In this document: positions 5,124 through 36,741 of the stretch, one piece after another | Numbering within the stretch: the first letter of the stretch is position 1 | Layout of the letters: the number at the start of each line of letters is the position of its first letter | Source of the DNA: a virus | DNA length: 36,741 nucleotides | Virus record (IMG/VR): IMGVR_UViG_3300021495_000012 | Coordinates: 1 to 36,741 of that record | Reading direction: 5' to 3' (one strand) | Program-made: the position numbers and the translations under genes | The notes under the pieces: model-generated | Seen by the model: the letters and a program-made list of their open reading frames with translations, nothing else | Database searches by the model: none | Told to the model about the DNA's origin: nothing

Positions 5124-6137
5124 ATGAAAGAAAAAACAAGAAAATATGAATTGCTAAAAGACACTTTCATCAGATGGTCTGGTGTAAAGCTCTATCGAAT
5201 TAGAGCTTGTAGAGATTTTGGAGATGTAAAAAAAGGTGATTTAGGCGGGTATATCGAGAAAGAAGAAAATCTTTCCCACGAAGGAACATGCTGGCTCTAC
5301 GATAATGCTAAAGCATTCGGTAACGCTAGAGTAGCTGGTGATGCCAAGATTTATAATATTGCTAGGATTTCCGGAAATTCCGAAATATATGGTAACGCAA
5401 AAATTTGGGATAATGCCCGCGTCATGGACGACGCCTTTGTATTTGATAAAGCTGAGATTCGAGAAAACGCAGTAATCAAAGATAGGGCTATGGTGCATGG
5501 AAAGGCTAAAGTAAGTGGAAGGGCTTTGATTTGTGGTAATACAGAAGTCAGAGGTAATGCCAAGGTTCGTGACCATGCTATAGTTCAAGACTTTGCTAAA
5601 GTTGACGAAAACGCTGAAGTGTTTGAGTTCGCTTGTATTTGTGAATTTGCTAGAGCCGACGGTAATTCAAAGATTTTTGGCTCAGCCAGGTTGGGAGGAA
5701 AAGCTAAAGCGAGCGGAAATGCGGTAATTTACGGTGATGCAAATATCTGGTGCGGCCAAATAACCAAAGATATTAGGGAAGATCTAATTCAGTACATTGC
5801 ATGCTCACTAAATGTTTACCCAATCAATGGAAAATACGTCCTATATAAGCGAGTAAATAAAAAGGCTCCGGGAATGTATGTGTCCCTTTTTGACCCTCAT
5901 TTCGTGTATCGTGATGGCGAATACGCTGAAGTTGAGATTCCAAACTTGGATTTTCTGAAAAGTTGTGGCGCTGGCATACATGTTTCAACACCTTTTTACT
6001 GGCAAGACGGCGATACACTAATTGCTGTGGAGGTAAGTATTGATGATATTATCACGTGCATGGAAGGAAAGCTAAGGTGTAAAAAAGTAAGAGTAATAGG
6101 AGAGGTGGACAATGAAAGAAAAAACAAAAAAGTATGA
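5124..6137 (+). CDS. Left-handed beta-helix repeat protein, paralogue A
   Basis: A 337-residue protein in three parts. Residues 1-55 form an N-terminal cap (YRIRACRDFGDVKKGDLGGY). Residues about 57-210 are back-to-back short repeats of the type GNAxVxGDAxI, characteristic of hexapeptide/left-handed beta-helix folds. A conserved C-terminal domain of about 110 residues follows, ending in EGKLRCKKVRVIGEV. It has no transferase active-site His that I can identify, so a binding or structural role is more likely than acyl transfer. The start has GGAGGTACAAG. It overlaps the second paralogue by 26 bases, and its last residues are an out-of-frame reading of that gene's start. Confidence 0.8.
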   Translation: MKEKTRKYELLKDTFIRWSGVKLYRIRACRDFGDVKKGDLGGYIEKEENLSHEGTCWLYDNAKAFGNARVAGDAKIYNIARISGNSEIYGNAKIWDNARVMDDAFVFDKAEIRENAVIKDRAMVHGKAKVSGRALICGNTEVRGNAKVRDHAIVQDFAKVDENAEVFEFACICEFARADGNSKIFGSARLGGKAKASGNAVIYGDANIWCGQITKDIREDLIQYIACSLNVYPINGKYVLYKRVNKKAPGMYVSLFDPHFVYRDGEYAEVEIPNLDFLKSCGAGIHVSTPFYWQDGDTLIAVEVSIDDIITCMEGKLRCKKVRVIGEVDNERKNKKV

Positions 6138-7095
6138 GTTGTTAAAAGATGACTTTATTGAATGGTTTGGAATACGGCTTTATCGAATCAAAGCATGCAG
6201 AAGCTTTGAAGATATAGCAAAAGGAACTCTTGGTGGATACATTGAAAAAGAATCAAACCTTTCTCATGACGGTAATTGTTGGGTTTATAAAGGAGCTAAA
6301 GTTTGGGGAAACGCTAAAATTTGTGATAATGCAAAGATTTTTGCTGGTTCTGAAGTATATGATAATGCAGTGGTTCGGGATAATGCTTGTGTTGATGGCG
6401 CTAAGATATTTGAAAACGCTTTGGTTCATGGTGAAGCGTATGCCAAAGATAATGTTTTAATTTACGGTAACGCTGAAATATTCGGAAATGCATTGGTCCG
6501 TGATGATGCGTCAGTCAGGGGCAATGCTCAAATCCATGGAAGTGCTATAATTCAAAATTTCGCCAAGGTTGGTGATAATGCCGAAGTATTCGGCTCTGCT
6601 CAAATTTGTGATTTTGCTGAAATCTCTGGCAGAGCGAGAATTTATGATAGAGCGATAGTGGGAGGAGACGCCGTAGTTGGTGGAAATGCAGAAGTCTACG
6701 GAAAAGCCCAGCTTAGATACGGCTTGCTGACCCAAGATATCAAAAAAGATCTAATTCAATACATTGCATGTTCGCTAAACGTTTATCCAGTCAATGGGAA
6801 ATATATCTTGTATAAGCGAGTGAATAAAGTGGTTCCTGGTGTATATGCGTCTCTCTTTGATCCTCAGTTCAAATATCGTGATGGCGAATATGCCGAAGCT
6901 GAAAACCCAGACCCAGATTTTATGAAAAGTTGCGGTGGAGGTATTCATGTTTCAACTCCATTTTATTGGGATGAAGGTAGCACATTAATTGCTGTGGAGG
7001 TAGATGTTAATGATGTTATTACATGTATGGAGGGAAAGCTAAGATGTAAAAAAGTAAAAGTGTTAGGGGAAGTTCAAACATCGAAAGATATGTGA
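6112..7095 (+). CDS. Left-handed beta-helix repeat protein, paralogue B
   Basis: A tandem duplicate of the preceding gene (327 aa). The N-terminal cap and the C-terminal domain (from LIQYIACSLNVYP to EGKLRCKKVKVLGEV) are highly similar, while the central GNAxVxGDAxI repeats have diverged and differ in number. Weak site GAGAGGTGG before ATG, so translation is probably coupled to paralogue A. Retention of two co-transcribed copies with conserved ends and varied centres suggests paired or hetero-oligomeric function, or different binding specificity in the helix. Confidence 0.8.
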   Translation: MKEKTKKYELLKDDFIEWFGIRLYRIKACRSFEDIAKGTLGGYIEKESNLSHDGNCWVYKGAKVWGNAKICDNAKIFAGSEVYDNAVVRDNACVDGAKIFENALVHGEAYAKDNVLIYGNAEIFGNALVRDDASVRGNAQIHGSAIIQNFAKVGDNAEVFGSAQICDFAEISGRARIYDRAIVGGDAVVGGNAEVYGKAQLRYGLLTQDIKKDLIQYIACSLNVYPVNGKYILYKRVNKVVPGVYASLFDPQFKYRDGEYAEAENPDPDFMKSCGGGIHVSTPFYWDEGSTLIAVEVDVNDVITCMEGKLRCKKVKVLGEVQTSKDM

Positions 7096-7800: not shown

Positions 7801-7944
7801 ATGATAAGAAAATTGCAGGCACTACGTGAATGTATAAGAAAACTGCCAGCAATCGCAAAAGATGAAATCGAGGTAAAAGAAGAAGCATTAAGGCTTATTG
7901 CTGAATTGCAAAAGGATTTAAGTATAAGGAGAAACATGAAATGA
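7801..7944 (+). CDS. Small hypothetical helical protein, 47 aa
   Basis: AAAGGAGAAATC precedes the ATG at 7801; an upstream in-frame ATG at 7699 lies in the previous gene and lacks a site. The product is a single charged helical stretch, basic overall. It ends by ATGA overlap with the macro-domain gene, so it may serve chiefly to couple that gene's translation. No family recognised. Confidence 0.6.
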   Translation: MIRKLQALRECIRKLPAIAKDEIEVKEEALRLIAELQKDLSIRRNMK

Positions 7945-8393
7945 CTAAATTTACCAGAGGTAACTTGTTAGAAGCCGATGTAGAAGCCTTAGTTAATGCG
8001 GTAAACACAGTAGGAGTAATGGGCAAGGGTATTGCTCTGCAATTTCGTCAGGCTTTTCCAGAGAACTACGAAGCGTATAGAAGAGCTTGTAAATCTGGGG
8101 AGGTGAGAATAGGTAAGATGTTTGTTGTATCGACTGGTTATCTTACTAATCCTCGTTATATTATCAACTTCCCAACGAAACGTCATTGGCGTGATAAATC
8201 CAAATTAGAATATATCAGAGATGGCTTAAAAGATTTGATATATATTGTTAAGAAGAAAAACATTTCTTCGATTGCTATCCCGCCCTTAGGTTGTGGACTT
8301 GGAGGTCTACGTTGGGAGGATGTTCGTCCTCTTATCATTGAAGTCTTTAAATCTGTTCCAAATATGGAGGTATTAGTTTATGAACCTTACTAG
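7941..8393 (+). CDS. Stand-alone DarG-type macro domain
   Basis: A 150-residue protein that is a single macro domain. Macro domains bind ADP-ribose and many hydrolyse it from targets. The sequence is closest in pattern to the N-terminal domain of DarG, the antitoxin that removes ADP-ribose from DNA: VNAVNTVGVMGKGIA (18-32), NFPTKRHWR (76-84) with the Lys at the position implicated in DarG catalysis (Lys80), and PPLGCGLGGL (114-123). DarG's C-terminal DarT-binding domain is absent and no DarT toxin is next to it. In a phage this suggests protection against host DarT-like DNA ADP-ribosylation, though ADP-ribose metabolite processing is possible. Coupled by ATGA to the preceding 47-aa gene. Confidence 0.88.
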   Translation: MTKFTRGNLLEADVEALVNAVNTVGVMGKGIALQFRQAFPENYEAYRRACKSGEVRIGKMFVVSTGYLTNPRYIINFPTKRHWRDKSKLEYIRDGLKDLIYIVKKKNISSIAIPPLGCGLGGLRWEDVRPLIIEVFKSVPNMEVLVYEPY

Positions 8394-9267: not shown

Positions 9268-9618
9268 ATGTCAATAGGAGGCAAAATGGATTGGCAAGAA
9301 CTACAAGGAGGGCTAATTAGATCAAAATATTGTTATTTTTATATAGACAGAGGTGTTTTGCTTTGCAGGGATTGTTCTGATGTGATGAAGGAAATACCAG
9401 ATGACAATCTTCGCTACTACTCCGCCAAAAGTGAAAAGGAGTTGGAAGATGTATGGAATTTTGAGAAGTTTAAAAGAGTGGCTAGGGAATTGTGTAGAAC
9501 TACAAAAAAGGGTGGTGTGGTAGTTTTGATAGTGGCAAATGCTACTATCATCGAAGAAGATTTTGGGAAAGGAGGAATAAATGCTTGTGCCCGTCAAAAG
9601 ACAAAGACTAATAGTTGA
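9268..9618 (+). CDS. Degenerate DNA-methyltransferase-like protein
   Basis: The 116-residue product looks like a shrunken amino-DNA methyltransferase. LLCRDCSDVMKEIPDDN (about residues 31-47) resembles the GDCLxVMxxIPDxS segment that normally precedes the catalytic DPPY/SPPY motif, and FKRVARELCRTTKKGGVVVL (about 70-89) resembles the ELxRVLKxGGVVV segment that normally follows it. The catalytic motif itself and the target-recognition region are missing, so it cannot be an active methyltransferase of the usual kind. Two start codons have good sites (9268 and 9286). It overlaps the next gene by 38 bases. It may be a decayed gene or a repurposed SAM- or DNA-binding remnant. Confidence 0.55.
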   Translation: MSIGGKMDWQELQGGLIRSKYCYFYIDRGVLLCRDCSDVMKEIPDDNLRYYSAKSEKELEDVWNFEKFKRVARELCRTTKKGGVVVLIVANATIIEEDFGKGGINACARQKTKTNS

Positions 9619-10189
9619 AGCCTTTGGGTGCAAAACACCTACGCTTAATTCGGTTGAATTTGCTTACAATTTGTTGGAAGAATTGAGCCAGATTATTGAC
9701 ATGCGCATTGTTACCCCGCCTCAGGTGATTAGAATTCCAGTAGCAAATGCCGTAGAACAAATAGCTACAAATGCTGATTACGGAATAAGTGGTACTGTTT
9801 TATGGCTGGAAAGTGGAGCACAGCTACACACATGGCCAGAATACCGTTTTCTGACTCTGGATATTTTTTCCTGCAAATCATTTGATAGTAACCTTGTTCA
9901 CGACTTCGTTACAGACAAGGTTAAACCAGACCATGTGGTAGCATATAACCCCGCAGGGATGATGAAATCTGTTGCAAAAAGCCTTCAGTATCAGGTTGGA
10001 GGTTCTCATTATAAGAATTTTGCAATCCAACCGGTTGAATTCATTAAAGCCAACGAATTAGGCTTTATCGAAGGTAACATCATAAAATATATCTGCCGTT
10101 ACAGGAATACGAAACAAAAAAGGGATTTGGAAAAGATTAAACACTATGTAGATTTGCTTATGGACTTAGAGGAGAAAAACAATGCTTGA
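9581..10189 (+). CDS. SpeD-like pyruvoyl decarboxylase fused to DUF3310
   Basis: A 202-residue two-domain protein. Residues about 10-118 match S-adenosylmethionine decarboxylase (SpeD/SpeH): GISGTVLWLES (68-78), LHTWPEY (82-88) and DIFSC (94-98). The Ser expected to become the pyruvoyl group (Ser78), the processing His (83) and the catalytic Cys (98) are kept, but the normal ESH triplet is ESG. Residues 136-198 are a DUF3310 domain (YQVGGSHYK, EGNIIKYICRY, KIKHYVDLL), the family of phage T7 gp1.7 nucleotide kinase. SpeD enzymes start spermidine synthesis; relatives have shifted to ornithine or arginine. AAAGGAGG supports the start. Polyamine supply for DNA packaging or a nucleotide-linked role are both possible. 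Confidence 0.8.
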   Translation: MLVPVKRQRLIVEAFGCKTPTLNSVEFAYNLLEELSQIIDMRIVTPPQVIRIPVANAVEQIATNADYGISGTVLWLESGAQLHTWPEYRFLTLDIFSCKSFDSNLVHDFVTDKVKPDHVVAYNPAGMMKSVAKSLQYQVGGSHYKNFAIQPVEFIKANELGFIEGNIIKYICRYRNTKQKRDLEKIKHYVDLLMDLEEKNNA

Positions 10190-31262: not shown

Positions 31263-32597
31263 GTGCTGCTACGAAAAAACATACTCAGACCTAAAGAACG
31301 ACCGTGCAATGTTCTATATGAACCTGCTATATTGGTGGGGGCGAGGTATGCTGGTTCTTATTCGTTCGAAATTTCCCCTGAAATTGGTATTCGAGAAACT
31401 ACACTCCCCGCAAATCTGGCAACAAGGTTTTGCATATCACATTGCATCCATATCGGTCGGGTTTTTATTCAATTTGATCCACATAATTATCCGGTTGTTT
31501 GTGATTGGTGGCCACCGTCAGGGCACAGACACAAATACATTTACGTTATTAGAGACATTCCAGGGATTCCCAGCCTCAGGTCGTATATTATCGGAGCAAA
31601 TGTTATGCTGAAACGAGTTTCAGACGGGAAAATACTCAATACAGATAGCATTTCAATACGCACCGATTGGGACAGCTGGTGCTGGGCTATTGATGCTTCT
31701 CTACTTGATAAAGATTCATTAAATGCTATAATCCCATCAGGAGATGACTACGTTGAAGTAGAAGCAGAAATAAATTCACACAAATGGAGATTTCTCATAG
31801 AAAAATGGAGAAGACAAAGAACATTTGGGACAACTGTGTATAGAATCACAGGCAGAAGTCCAAGCATGATTCTGGCTGATCCTGTAGCCCCAAGACGCAA
31901 CTATTTGAATGAACAAGACATTCTAGCCAGACAACTTGCAGATGAAATACTGGAAAATACAGGCTGGGCAATTGGTGTATGGGATACAGTAGATTGGTTA
32001 ATAAAAGCAAAATCATTTTCACTAACAAATGTTACCCCAATGAAAGCGATTACAACTATTGCAAATGCCGTTGGGGCGTTTGTTAACACTGATATGATAA
32101 ATAAAGAACTACACGTCCGAAAACGCTATCGACATTCCCCCTGGCTGTGGAATAACGAAACCCCAGATTATGAAATACCAGATAGCATAATACACGAACT
32201 TTCAAATGAATATGAACGAAGATACCCATATAACGCTGTATATGTGGCGGGTAGCGATGAAAATGGGGTCTTGGCAAAGATTTACAGAAGCGGAACGGCG
32301 GGGGATGTGTACCCAGAAAATTTGATTCAGGATTCTCTAATTACCGATTCCACCGCAGCCCAGGAGCGGGGGCGAATCGAATTAAGCTCAGCGGGAACGT
32401 GGGAAAAAATATCTCTGGCTATTCCACTTATGGAAAGCTCCCCCGGAGTCTGCCTGCCTGGGGATTTTATACAAATCGCAGAAGAAGGAACTCGCATGAA
32501 AAGTATTGTTACAGGCGTACAAATATCAGCAACTGTTGATAACACAGGAAAGCTTTCCGTAATACAGGTAGTAGATACGGAGAGGTATTATGAGTAA
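31263..32597 (+). CDS. Tail tip / baseplate hub protein, 444 aa
   Basis: GTG start four bases after the previous stop. Residues 170-300 (VEAEINSHKWRFLIEKWRRQRTFG, ITGRSPSMILADPV, ARQLADEILENTGW, VTPMKAITTIANAVGAFV) match the organisation of phage tail-hub/gp44-like proteins that contact the tape measure tip. The C-terminal part (QERGRIELSSAG, PGDFIQIAEEGTRMKSIVTG) is typical of the domain that finishes such hubs. It overlaps the next gene by eight bases. Confidence 0.75.
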   Translation: MLLRKNILRPKERPCNVLYEPAILVGARYAGSYSFEISPEIGIRETTLPANLATRFCISHCIHIGRVFIQFDPHNYPVVCDWWPPSGHRHKYIYVIRDIPGIPSLRSYIIGANVMLKRVSDGKILNTDSISIRTDWDSWCWAIDASLLDKDSLNAIIPSGDDYVEVEAEINSHKWRFLIEKWRRQRTFGTTVYRITGRSPSMILADPVAPRRNYLNEQDILARQLADEILENTGWAIGVWDTVDWLIKAKSFSLTNVTPMKAITTIANAVGAFVNTDMINKELHVRKRYRHSPWLWNNETPDYEIPDSIIHELSNEYERRYPYNAVYVAGSDENGVLAKIYRSGTAGDVYPENLIQDSLITDSTAAQERGRIELSSAGTWEKISLAIPLMESSPGVCLPGDFIQIAEEGTRMKSIVTGVQISATVDNTGKLSVIQVVDTERYYE

Positions 32598-32823
32598 TAT
32601 CTGGAAACATTTCAGATCACTAATAGAACCCACAGCAGCTAAAATATATGGACAAATCACAGCAGTAGATCCAAGTGGTACAATATATACAATCACAACC
32701 CACACGGGAAGTTCTATGCGGGCGAAAGGAAGCGGTTATAGCATAGGAGATAGAGTTTTTGTTATAGGTAGCGAAATAAAAAGCAAAGCTCCCGTGATGC
32801 CTTATTATGAATTTGAAGTATGA
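32590..32823 (+). CDS. Small baseplate-associated protein, 77 aa
   Basis: Overlaps the hub gene by eight bases (ATGAGTAA). The product is an OB-like beta barrel by pattern (AKIYGQITAVDPSGTIYTI, GYSIGDRVFVIGSEI), similar to small proteins following hub genes. The IscB element is inserted just past its stop codon. Confidence 0.6.
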   Translation: MSNIWKHFRSLIEPTAAKIYGQITAVDPSGTIYTITTHTGSSMRAKGSGYSIGDRVFVIGSEIKSKAPVMPYYEFEV

Positions 32824-32839
32824 AATGTGATTCCAGTTG

Positions 32840-33143
32840 AGGACCCAGGTTAGGTCTAGTTTAGACTTAATGAACCTGATCTGGGTTCAAGCCCAAGGTG
32901 GTCTTTGATAAATGGATAAGCTCCCATCGGGAAATGAACCGATGGTGTAAAAGAGCCAAGAGGCTTGCCACCTACGTTCTATGGTTGTCCGTAAGGACAG
33001 ATACCCTGGGATGTTGCTCCAGTCCCAGGCTCTATCGGTCATCGGGAACGAAACAAGCCTGAGATGGTGGTGAACATCTCGACGACTATCAGAGACCATA
33101 GGACATGGGCGAGGAGCACCATAACCCTATATGGAGGTGGTTC
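32840..33143 (+). ncRNA. HEARO / omega-RNA of the IscB system
   Basis: A structured, gene-free region directly upstream of iscB, as found for HEARO RNAs (IscB guide RNAs). Stems visible: GGACCCAG/CTGGGTTC (32841-32848, 32881-32888), AGGTT/AACCT and GTCTA/TAGAC inside it, AGGTGG/CCACCT (32896-32901, 32968-32973), CCATCGG/CCGATGG (32924-32945), CTATGG/CCATAG (32979-32984, 33096-33101), TGTCC-GTAA-GGACA (32986-32999, GNRA loop), CCTGGGA/TCCCAGG (33005-33029), GAGATG/CATCTC (33061-33080) and CCATA/TATGG (33119-33134). In IscB systems the guide is at the 5' end of the RNA, so it would come from the sequence just before about 32840, next to the tail gene's stop. Ends are approximate. Confidence 0.8.
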
Positions 33144-33147
33144 TTAA

Positions 33148-34353
33148 ATGAACATTCCTAAACATCCTATGGTTTTTGTAATTGATGCAAAAGGTAGACC
33201 TTTGCTACCAACACATCCAGCAAGAGCTAGAAAGCTCTTAAAACAAGGTAAAGCAAAAGTGTATAAAATGGTGCCTTTTACAATTCAGTTGAACTATGAG
33301 ATTAAAAATCCTAAGGGAGAATTTACTATTGGTATTGATGATGGAGCAAAATTTTTAGGTATAGCGATTAGATCTAATTCGGATAAGAATAAAATAGTAT
33401 TTGCCGCAAATGTTCGTTTGCGACAAGATGTGAAGCGTAAAATAAATGAGCGTCGCATGTATAGAAGAAATAGACGTAGTAGAAAATTACGATATAGATC
33501 TGCTAGATTCTCAAATAGAAAGCGTCCTGATGGTTGGATTCCACCAAGTATAAAATATCGTAAAGATGTTATATTGAGGGTGATAGATAATTTGCGGCAA
33601 TATCTAAATATTACAAAGGCAGTGGTAGAAATGGGACGTTTTGATATATCTAGCATGGCTAGAAATAGGAAACTGAAAAGTGTTGAGTATCAACAATCTG
33701 ACTTTGAAGGGAAAAATCTTCGGGAAAAAGTTCTGTGGAGGGATAATTATAAATGTCAGCAATGTGATGTAACATCAAATCTACAGATACATCACATAAT
33801 CCCGAAAAGTAAAGGTGGAACAAACACATTGAATAATCTTATAACTTTATGTGCCAAGTGCCATAAAGAATTACATGAAGGTAAATGGAAATTAAATAAA
33901 AAGCCAAAACAGTTTAAATATCCTGCAGTTGCACAACAAGGTAAATGGTATTTGTATAATGAATTAGTTAAACGCTTTGGAAAAGAGAATGTGAAAGCAA
34001 CATTTGGTTGGATAACATCGATGAAACGCAAGGAACTCAAATTAGAGAAAGATCATTGGTTAGATGCGTGTGCAATGTTAGATACTAACAAAATAATGGT
34101 AAAACCTTTCTTAATTATACCAAGACGCCGTAGGAAAGAAGTAAATAACCCATCAAAGAAACATACTGAGTACAAAGGGTTCAGGCATTGGGATTTAGTA
34201 GTTGCAGTACGTGCAAGCAAGAAAATAATAGGTACGGTACGAAGTCTAAAGAAGCGTGTAGTGGCGTTGCGAACAAACTTTAGTGATAATTTTGATGTAT
34301 CATATTCTAAAGCAAAATTGCTTTGGAGGCCAGCGGGTTTAGTGTTTGTTTAA
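33148..34353 (+). CDS. iscB: IscB RNA-guided endonuclease
   Basis: A 401-residue nuclease, ancestral relative of Cas9, that uses omega-RNA to cut double-stranded DNA. Domains in order: PLMP-like N terminus (GRPLLPTHPARARKLLKQGKAKVY, shown in the first 39 residues), RuvC-I GIDDGAKFLG (Asp64), Arg-rich bridge helix (about 92-120), RuvC-II VVEMGRFD (Glu161), HNH domain CQQC (203-206), IHHI (214-217), LCAKCH (234-239), RuvC-III KDHWLDACA (His303, Asp306), then a basic C-terminal domain. All catalytic residues for both nucleases are present, so it looks active. GGAGGTGG lies seven bases before the ATG. Confidence 0.95.
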   Translation: MNIPKHPMVFVIDAKGRPLLPTHPARARKLLKQGKAKVYKMVPFTIQLNYEIKNPKGEFTIGIDDGAKFLGIAIRSNSDKNKIVFAANVRLRQDVKRKINERRMYRRNRRSRKLRYRSARFSNRKRPDGWIPPSIKYRKDVILRVIDNLRQYLNITKAVVEMGRFDISSMARNRKLKSVEYQQSDFEGKNLREKVLWRDNYKCQQCDVTSNLQIHHIIPKSKGGTNTLNNLITLCAKCHKELHEGKWKLNKKPKQFKYPAVAQQGKWYLYNELVKRFGKENVKATFGWITSMKRKELKLEKDHWLDACAMLDTNKIMVKPFLIIPRRRRKEVNNPSKKHTEYKGFRHWDLVVAVRASKKIIGTVRSLKKRVVALRTNFSDNFDVSYSKAKLLWRPAGLVFV

Positions 34354-34411
34354 TGTTTTAGATAATGAGAAAAATTGTTATGATATCGAGTGTAAATGAA
34401 GGAGGTTTACA

Positions 34412-34822
34412 ATGCCAACATATAAAAACATATCAGATCAGATACAATATGTAGACGGAAAATTCATCCGACCAAACGAAACTATTGAAACAGAACAAAT
34501 AATAACAGATCCTGATTTTCAAAAAATTAGCGACGATCCAATCTGGTCGCCACTTAAATTTTCGCAAACATATAATCTAACAGCAGGCGCTACTCAAGAA
34601 GTGTCTATACCCACCCCAGATTTCGATATGTATGTTGTAATATTACAGAATACCGGCGGGGTGAATATTTATAACGGTACATCGGATACGTTGGCAGTAC
34701 TTCTTCCTAATCAACTTGCTTCTTTTAATACCTACGGGAAGATTGAAACTTTGACATTAGAAGCAATCAATGATTGTACTGTTACAATAGCAATTTTTTC
34801 CGAAGAAGTAAACATAGATTAA
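34412..34822 (+). CDS. Hypothetical tail/fibre protein, 136 aa
   Basis: First gene after the IscB element; AAGGAGGTTTACA precedes ATG. It has a short N-terminal arm (MPTYKNISDQIQYVDGKFI), then a beta-sandwich region (YNLTAGATQEVSIPTPDFDMYVVILQN, split here) resembling phage fibre-associated proteins. No named family. Confidence 0.6.
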   Translation: MPTYKNISDQIQYVDGKFIRPNETIETEQIITDPDFQKISDDPIWSPLKFSQTYNLTAGATQEVSIPTPDFDMYVVILQNTGGVNIYNGTSDTLAVLLPNQLASFNTYGKIETLTLEAINDCTVTIAIFSEEVNID

Positions 34823-34834
34823 GAGGTGGTGACA

Positions 34835-36741
34835 ATGATTAAGATAAAGCAAAAATCAGATTCTGGAATTTTTACTTCCCCTACTTCAGATGTTGATTGG
34901 GGAGGACACCGAATTTTTAATCTCGGTGATCCTATTGATCTAAAAGACGCTGTAAACGAGCAATATTTAGCAAAAGCTGTATCTGCTATCGGCTCTAGGT
35001 ATTACATGCTGAACACCGATTCGGGAATAGGAAGTTATAAACTATGCTCTTCTACTCCATCAACAGGAGACGAACAAAGCTTATCAGTGACTGATTTGAC
35101 CGACGGGCAAGAGATTGGTGGCTGGATTGCTCCTAATGCAGGCGAGCCTCCAAAGTTGATCGTCGGGGTTTACAATTGGCGAATTTACGCAGAAAAAACA
35201 GCAGGCACGCAAACCTTGCGGCTTTATTGGAAACTAATAGAACGAAAAAGTGATACTTCTGAAGTTGAGATTGCGACTTCAATTGTCAGTAATGAAATAG
35301 TAACAGGTAAAAATTCATACATAATCCCGCTTACACTGAATGCGGATTATGAAGTAGCTCCTGACAGTTATGTGGCTTGTAAAGTGTTCGCTGAAGTAAG
35401 CGGTGGCGGTTCTGCTCCAGCGGTATCGTTATATTTTGAAGGAAATTCGGCTTCGCATTTTCAAATACCTGCTAATACAGAAGTGTTAGACAGTCATTAT
35501 GCACATATTGATCTTGGCAATGTCAGTGATTCTAGTGTTTTGGATAAAATTAAAAATGTTGATGGCGAAGGGTCGGGGTTGGATGCCGACACAGTAAGAA
35601 CCTTCCCTGCCTCCCAATCACCACAGGCAAACACTATTGTAGTTTCAAATTCGGATGGAAAGATAGATAGTGCTTGGTTACCTAATGTAGGTTCGCCCGC
35701 TGGGGTTACGGTTACAACGATTCCAGCAGGACAAAGCTATTATCTAGACAATAACTTTTTACAGATAATTTCTGCCGAAGATAATGATTGTAAAGTTATT
35801 CTACCAGATGCAACAACCCAAACAGCAGGAAAACTAACGTATATAATCAGATGCAATGGGAATTATAAAATATTTCTTTACAACAAAGAAGAATCTGCTA
35901 TAGTTTCTGTTTTATATCCAAATAAAGTTTATTTAATAACTCCTAAAAATACTACAACGAGTGCTGGGTATTGGGAAAGCGCTGAATTAGATGCCGCTTC
36001 TTTTGCTGCTATAGTTGGGAAATTTAAATATATATTTGAGAATGCTACTACAGACTACATCTCAACTACTACTCTGTCTAACGATAACGTACTTATAGCT
36101 TATCGAGATGTTGGGAACTCTGACTATGGAACATTCTGCATCTACGATAAAAATGGTAATCAAGTAGTAGCTCCTACTGTATTTAATAGTGCTAATACAA
36201 TCTACATCTCAACTACTACTCTATCTAACGATAATGTACTTATAGCTTATCGAGATGTTGGGAACTCTAATTATGGTACATTCTGCATCTACAATGAAAA
36301 TGGTAATCAAGTAGTAGCTCCTACTGTATTTAATAGTGCTGCTACAGCCTACATCTCAGCTACTACTCTGTCTAACGATAATGTACTTATAGCTTACCAA
36401 GATGTTGGAAACTCTGACTATGGTACATTCTGCATCTACAATGAAAATGGTAATCAAGTAGTAGCTCCTACTGTATTTAATAGTGCTGTTACACGCGACA
36501 TCTCAGCTACTACTCTGTCTAACGATAATGTACTTATAGCTTATCGAGATGTTGGGAACTCTAATTATGGTACATTCTGCATCTACAATGAAAATGGTAA
36601 TCAAGTAGTAGCTCCTACTGTATTTAATAGTGCCTTTACAACCTACATCTCAACTACTACTCTGTCTAACGATAACGTACTTATAGCTTATCGAGATGTT
36701 GGGAACTCTGACTATGGAACATTCTGCATCTACGATAAAAA
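34835..36741 (+). CDS. Receptor-binding-like fibre protein, partial at window end
   Basis: GAGGTGGTGACA precedes the ATG; the frame is open to the last base, at least 635 codons. N-terminal residues 15-60 (TSPTSDVDWGGHRIFNLGDP, DAVNEQYLAKAV) are a tail-fibre attachment-like segment. The middle (about 60-390) is beta-rich. From 36038 the protein consists of 49-residue repeats, e.g. ISTTTLSNDNVLIAYRDVG and GTFCIYDKNGNQVVAPTVF, the strand order of beta-propeller blades. The first two variable codons in each unit follow an NNT/NNC pattern. The gene's end is outside the window. Confidence 0.75.
   Translation, partial: MIKIKQKSDSGIFTSPTSDVDWGGHRIFNLGDPIDLKDAVNEQYLAKAVSAIGSRYYMLNTDSGIGSYKLCSSTPSTGDEQSLSVTDLTDGQEIGGWIAPNAGEPPKLIVGVYNWRIYAEKTAGTQTLRLYWKLIERKSDTSEVEIATSIVSNEIVTGKNSYIIPLTLNADYEVAPDSYVACKVFAEVSGGGSAPAVSLYFEGNSASHFQIPANTEVLDSHYAHIDLGNVSDSSVLDKIKNVDGEGSGLDADTVRTFPASQSPQANTIVVSNSDGKIDSAWLPNVGSPAGVTVTTIPAGQSYYLDNNFLQIISAEDNDCKVILPDATTQTAGKLTYIIRCNGNYKIFLYNKEESAIVSVLYPNKVYLITPKNTTTSAGYWESAELDAASFAAIVGKFKYIFENATTDYISTTTLSNDNVLIAYRDVGNSDYGTFCIYDKNGNQVVAPTVFNSANTIYISTTTLSNDNVLIAYRDVGNSNYGTFCIYNENGNQVVAPTVFNSAATAYISATTLSNDNVLIAYQDVGNSDYGTFCIYNENGNQVVAPTVFNSAVTRDISATTLSNDNVLIAYRDVGNSNYGTFCIYNENGNQVVAPTVFNSAFTTYISTTTLSNDNVLIAYRDVGNSDYGTFCIYDK
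36038..36741 (+). repeat. Near-identical 147-base (49-residue) coding repeats
   Basis: Units start at 36038, 36185, 36332, 36479 and 36626; the last is cut by the window end. Period is exactly 147 bases. Unit 5 agrees with unit 1 at several positions where units 2-4 differ (GAC TAT GGA, GAT AAA), suggesting exchange between units. Differences cluster in codons 4 and 6 of each unit. Confidence 0.95.

What the first reader, a model, noticed from the sequence alone, without database searches (positions are those of the whole stretch)
32824..34411. IscB and its omega-RNA inserted as a putative homing unit in a phage tail operon
Seen: an intact iscB (RuvC and HNH residues complete) preceded by a multi-stem HEARO-like RNA, between two tail genes, with no transposase. 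Known: IscB uses an omega-RNA guide that lies at the RNA's 5' end; in transposon-borne cases the guide comes from flanking DNA. Inference: the guide here is read from the 3' end of the small baseplate gene (ending 32823), so the nuclease would cut related phages that lack the element, and repair would copy it in, like homing endonucleases between tail genes.
Basis: partly seen in the sequence, partly recalled or inferred. Interest (0 to 1): 0.85.

Follow-up and report, generated by a model that had tools for sequence, protein, structure and literature searches.

The report
Phage RNA-guided nuclease, probable homing element
A virus of bacteria carries, between two of its genes, a complete RNA-guided DNA cutter (IscB) with its guide RNA and no transposase; in cultured relatives of the element the guide is simply the DNA next to the insertion and matches the uninterrupted site in sister phages, so the unit probably spreads by cutting rivals that lack it.

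Summary
Window 33148-34353 is an intact 401-aa IscB, preceded by a HEARO-type omegaRNA (E 2.6e-11, below Rfam's gathering score), with no Y1 transposase in the 36.7-kb record. The scaffold starts with a 14-bp guide-adaptor hairpin (32841-32854: 32875-32888), so the guide is 32824-32840 (17 nt) or 32821-32840 (20 nt). It lies just after the upstream gene and shares only the stop codon with it. No relative of this phage with an empty site exists in the collections, so homing cannot be tested in this phage. I tested it in cultured phages carrying more distant IscB units (31-36% protein identity). At four insertion sites (three in Staphylococcus Herelleviridae phages, one in a Nodularia phage) the insert begins at the hairpin start, the guide is therefore flanking DNA, and close relatives hold the uninterrupted target (20/20 bases). 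In the Silviavirus case the element's right end carries a synonymously recoded copy of the next gene's start, which restores the protein and leaves five mismatches to the guide. Best reading: an RNA-guided homing element. Shown: anatomy and, in relatives, occupied versus empty sites. Inferred: cleavage, repair copying, transfer of the model to this phage.

The parts
32590..32823 (+). upstream tail-operon gene, 77 aa, phrog_5076, function unknown; C-terminus complete relative to the family
   Evidence: PHROGs E 2.1e-17 over 1-77 / 1-75 of 75; homologues of the preceding tail protein are followed by a similarly sized gene in Stenotrophomonas S1, Marinobacter AS1, Pseudomonas Lodos
32824..32840 (+). 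predicted omegaRNA guide (17 nt AATGTGATTCCAGTTGA; the 20-nt version is 32821-32840 TGAAATGTGATTCCAGTTGA)
   Evidence: bases directly 5' of the guide-adaptor hairpin; guide architecture from PMC9640706; occurs only once in the window at up to 3 mismatches
32841..32888 (+). guide-adaptor hairpin, arms 32841-32854 and 32875-32888, 14 consecutive pairs; scaffold nt 1 = 32841 = predicted left boundary of the element
   Evidence: 0 of 300 shuffles reach the stem score; OgeuIscB has a 14-bp guide-adaptor duplex; insert starts at this hairpin in four phages with empty sites
32889..33124 (+). rest of omegaRNA scaffold (nexus GCCC pairing with GGGC near 33106, central stem, pseudoknot hairpin)
   Evidence: HEARO RF02033 match 32872-33124, 57.9 bits, E 2.6e-11; covariation across 13 relatives
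33148..34353 (+). iscB, 401 aa, RuvC and HNH motifs complete
34345..34400 (+). interval in which the right end of the element must lie (close to the iscB stop codon, or at the latest at the Shine-Dalgarno AGGAGG 34401-34406)
   Evidence: in relatives the sequence stays alike only to about the last codons of iscB; in two Staphylococcus phages the right end reaches the next gene's Shine-Dalgarno
34412..34822 (+). downstream gene, 136 aa, no family match

Best explanation
A transposase-free IscB-omegaRNA unit that behaves as an RNA-guided homing element of phages. The unit starts at the guide-adaptor hairpin (32841) and ends at or shortly after iscB. Its guide is the host DNA just left of it (32821/32824-32840), read through from upstream. 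IscB with this guide should cut a related phage genome in which that sequence is still continuous with its right-hand flank, which supplies the TAM. Repair from the element-bearing genome then copies the unit in. The occupied allele is immune because the TAM side of the target has been moved about 1.5 kb away. Shown: anatomy, intact nuclease motifs, absence of a transposase in the record; and, in four other phage IscB insertions, boundary at the hairpin, guide in the flank, intact target in empty relatives. Inferred: cleavage, TAM identity, repair copying, and that the window's unit does the same.
For: Window anatomy. Left boundary at the hairpin in the window's own clade: L015, L017 and L019 are alike from the hairpin on, with unrelated DNA before it. 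Occupied versus empty: JDF86 against phiSA_BS1 (flanks 99.6%), Golestan101 against RSM-J51Sa, BS1 and PSU4, VL10 against Romulus and LSA2308, Nodularia kac68v162 against kac68v161 and kac65v151. The 20 nt before the hairpin match the continuous empty site 20/20 (one sub-lineage, MRSA21, 19/20), followed by GGAGAA, GGGGAT, AGGTGA and CAGAGA. The Silviavirus right end carries a recoded gene start (ACA AAT TCG AAG AAA AAA against ACA AAT AGT AAA AAA AAA, both TNSKKK), five mismatches to the guide next to an intact TAM-side sequence. Presence is patchy: 7 Silviavirus records carry it, over 40 close relatives have the empty site.
Against: No empty-site relative of the window phage, and no viral contig with the guide in a matching context. 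The IscBs with empty sites are only 31-36% identical to the window's. The guide match to empty sites follows in part from the flank being homologous; the informative part is where the boundary lies. Homing keeps a unit at one site and does not explain how the same unit reached different sites (JDF86 against Golestan101). No expression or cleavage data.
Confidence: 0.68

Rival explanations
1. Orphan ISC (IS200/IS605-like) transposon: the unit was placed by a TnpA-type transposase acting in trans and IscB only protects it from loss at excision; there is no spread between phages.
For: IscB is ancestrally linked to such transposons; the guide-from-flank arrangement is the same. The same unit sits at different sites in related phages and three copies sit in one phage contig, so some relocation beyond homing must happen.
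Against: No Y1 transposase in the record; most IscB loci lack TnpA (PMC9755519). The right junctions differ between sites (restored Shine-Dalgarno, recoded gene start), which does not look like one fixed transposon end.
Confidence: 0.2
2. A phage-phage competition weapon kept for its own sake: cutting competitor genomes (marker exclusion) is the selected function, and copying of the unit is incidental.
For: Same cleavage step as the main model; location in a tail gene operon; in the analogous phages empty relatives carry the exact target.
Against: Patchy distribution and varying sites fit a mobile unit better than a fixed weapon; not separable by sequence alone.
Confidence: 0.1
3. Inactive relic or a regulator (DNA binding without cutting).
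For: HEARO score is below Rfam's gathering score.
Against: All RuvC and HNH motif residues are kept and are invariant among relatives; ORF intact; the RNA structure covaries.
Confidence: 0.02

Closest known systems
IscB-omegaRNA (OMEGA) systems, e.g. OgeuIscB, HfmIscB
   Same: RRXRR/RuvC/HNH protein, HEARO-type RNA immediately upstream, guide 5' of a guide-adaptor hairpin
   Different: compact (401 aa), in a phage gene operon, no transposase in the record, divergent RNA (57.9 bits against Rfam cut-off 83)
TnpB gene drive of IS200/IS605 elements (PMC11870625)
   Same: RNA-guided nuclease takes its guide from the flank of the element and attacks copies lacking the element
   Different: there a TnpA transposase moves the element and the guide is at the other end; here HNH/RuvC IscB, guide at the 5' end, no transposase
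Free-standing phage homing endonucleases (T4 Seg/Mob, HNH types; PMC2988022)
   Same: intergenic nuclease unit between phage genes, present/absent polymorphism, occupied site immune (met in the Staphylococcus and Nodularia analogues)
   Different: protein-read site versus RNA-read site that is reset by each insertion
HEARO effectors found in viral contigs (PMC9755519)
   Same: IscB/HEARO with viral context: over 16% of fragments encoding them were classed as viral or prophage-derived
   Different: in the passages I read, no analysis of empty sites or homing

Membership tests
IscB (RNA-guided endonuclease) | RRXRR and HNH domains, IscB equivalog model | tested here: met
   (336 bits, cut-off 175)
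IscB (RNA-guided endonuclease) | complete RuvC (D, E, H/D) and HNH motif residues | tested here: met
IscB (RNA-guided endonuclease) | omegaRNA upstream with guide-adaptor hairpin and nexus | tested here: met
   below Rfam gathering score but E 2.6e-11
IscB (RNA-guided endonuclease) | RNA-guided double-strand cleavage with a TAM | not testable with these tools
   no biochemical data
ISC / IS200-IS605-type autonomous transposon | Y1 (TnpA/IscA) transposase in the element | tested here: not met
   ORFs adjoining iscB
Homing endonuclease element | occupied and empty alleles at the same site in related genomes | tested here: inconclusive
   window: no relatives; met at four sites in analogous phages
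Homing endonuclease element | insertion destroys the recognition site | tested here: inconclusive
   window: follows from anatomy; in analogues target and TAM side are separated, and the Silviavirus right end is recoded with five mismatches
Homing endonuclease element | super-Mendelian transfer in co-infection | not testable with these tools
   needs phage crosses

The most novel reading that the evidence does not exclude
Phages harbour a class of transposase-free, self-reprogramming homing elements: IscB-omegaRNA units whose specificity is reset at every insertion because the guide is the flank, and which rebuild the interrupted downstream gene start with a new Shine-Dalgarno or synonymous codons that escape their own guide.
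Probability: 0.5. Interest if true: 0.75.

Novelty: new variant of a known kind. Interest (0 to 1): 0.58.

Why it matters
IscB is the ancestor of Cas9, and what it does for its carrier without a transposase is unclear. If phage IscB units home, they are RNA-programmed counterparts of classical homing endonucleases, with specificity that follows the insertion site instead of having to evolve. The Staphylococcus phage pairs found here make this directly testable with existing isolates.

Tried and rejected
Empty site of the window phage: DNA search of cultured phages gave none; strict and profile searches of IMG/VR with the tail protein gave nothing close, best 38%; exact 17-nt guide search gave 10 stretches in seven or so unrelated contexts, none encoding the window proteins tested, about what chance would give. 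Empty sites for the window's own IscB clade: none for L011, L019, L021; the contig sharing DNA with L016 ends inside that element. My first guess that the guide lay directly before the nexus (32869-32888) was dropped: that stretch is the 3' arm of the guide-adaptor hairpin. Search for a repeat of the target at the right end of the window element: none (p 0.67). Clostridioides phage-plasmid as a further empty-site test gave no clean pair. Literature: no paper on IscB homing in phages found in the held library, which lacks most subscription papers and bioRxiv at large.

Full report
What is there. The 36,741-base window is a whole IMG/VR virus record with a head-to-tail gene order. The ORF at 33148-34353 is an intact IscB: RRXRR and HNH domains, NCBIfam 'RNA-guided endonuclease IscB' at 336 bits, HfmIscB as best solved relative, all RuvC and HNH motif residues invariant across 14 relatives. 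An AlphaFold model of moderate quality (pLDDT 69) finds IscB and IsrB structures as its ten best matches. The sequence in front of it is a HEARO-type RNA. The default Rfam scan misses it, but a targeted search gives 57.9 bits, E 2.6e-11, over the whole model. The fold is far more stable than shuffles, and in an alignment of 13 related upstream regions 17 of 26 consensus pairs show two-sided compensatory change. No Y1 transposase is present.

Where the guide is. In OgeuIscB the RNA runs guide, 14-bp guide-adaptor hairpin, one base, nexus stem (PMC9640706). The window has a 14-pair hairpin directly before the nexus: 32841-32854 with 32875-32888; none of 300 shuffles reaches its score. Scaffold position 1 is therefore 32841 and the guide is 32824-32840 (17 nt) or 32821-32840 (20 nt). 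That is the spacer after the stop codon of the 77-aa gene, not its coding end.

Is the guide part of the element or of the flank? In the window's own clade (IscBs about 47-59% identical from other viral contigs and two genomes), L015, L017 and L019 are alike from the first base of this hairpin onward and unrelated before it. L016, 86% identical to L015 from the nexus on, has a different hairpin, which I cannot explain. So in this clade the guide is flanking DNA.

Test of the homing prediction. The window phage has no close relative in the collections. I therefore used cultured phages that carry IscB (31-36% identity to the window protein). Staphylococcus phages JDF86, Golestan101 and VL10 carry an IscB unit at three different places, and Nodularia phage kac68v162 at a fourth, inside a tnpB-type transposase gene. 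Close relatives have the empty site. In all four the insert begins at the guide-adaptor hairpin. The 20 nt before it are found uninterrupted in the empty relatives with 0 mismatches (VL10's sister MRSA21: 1), followed by GGAGAA, GGGGAT, AGGTGA and CAGAGA. The first three include the next gene's Shine-Dalgarno region or start and suggest a purine-rich TAM; this is a suggestion from three sites of one IscB lineage. Because left flanks are homologous, a guide match as such is expected; the informative facts are that the insert edge coincides with scaffold position 1 and that the target is continuous only in the empty allele.

Junction repair. In VL10 and its sisters the insertion separates the resolvase gene from its start. 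The element's right end supplies a new ATG and the codons CTG ACA AAT TCG AAG AAA AAA, against ATG ACA AAT AGT AAA AAA AAA in empty phages. The protein TNSKKK is unchanged, while the sequence differs from the guide at five of 20 positions beside an intact TAM-side sequence. Other Twort-like phages encode similar residues with other codons, but none of those checked has TCG here. This looks like selection to keep the gene while escaping self-cutting, although co-conversion from an unsampled donor could also give it. In JDF86 and Golestan101 the right end instead rebuilds the Shine-Dalgarno.

Interpretation. Steps shown: intact nuclease and RNA; no transposase in the record; guide in the flank; in analogues, occupied and empty alleles with the expected geometry. 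Steps inferred: cleavage, TAM, repair copying, application to the window phage. What homing does not explain is how the same unit comes to lie at different sites (JDF86 against Golestan101, about 92% identical elements; three copies in one contig). Rare ectopic insertion, perhaps through the AAGG microhomology seen at the junctions, is needed; this is conjecture.

Novelty. IscB/HEARO genes in viral contigs are known (PMC9755519), and a TnpB-based gene drive akin to homing has been shown for plasmids (PMC11870625). I found no report of transposase-free IscB homing in phages in the held library, which is incomplete. I class it as a new variant of a known kind. The strongest evidence lies in the Staphylococcus phages rather than in the window itself.

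Noticed in passing
L015, L016 and L147 (G003:C1:85443-86633, 117970-119160, 124469-125656): One phage contig carries three iscB copies on the same strand (72-86% identical DNA to each other); two other contigs break inside such copies.
   Followed up: partly
L113 around 1000: Golestan101 has a 7-bp tandem duplication (CCTATAA) exactly at the target of the JDF86 element; it could be a scar of cutting and misrepair.
   Followed up: no
L108 1807-4655: Nodularia phage kac68v162 has its IscB unit inserted into a tnpB-type transposase gene of an IS607 element, one RNA-guided nuclease unit inside another.
   Followed up: partly
L016 3703-3750: Guide-adaptor hairpin unlike that of L015 and L019 although the rest of the element is 86% identical to L015; hairpin exchange during movement is possible.
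   Followed up: no
window 36043-36741: 147-bp tandem repeat (4.8 copies, 92% alike) in the last ORF, which runs off the record; fibre-like repetitive protein.
   Followed up: no
window 7941-8393: Macro-domain protein (PF01661, E 3e-28), a possible counter-defence gene.
   Followed up: no
window 9581-10189: S-adenosylmethionine decarboxylase domain fused to DUF3310.
   Followed up: no
window 5124-7095: Two tandem paralogous genes with hexapeptide (beta-solenoid) repeats.
   Followed up: no
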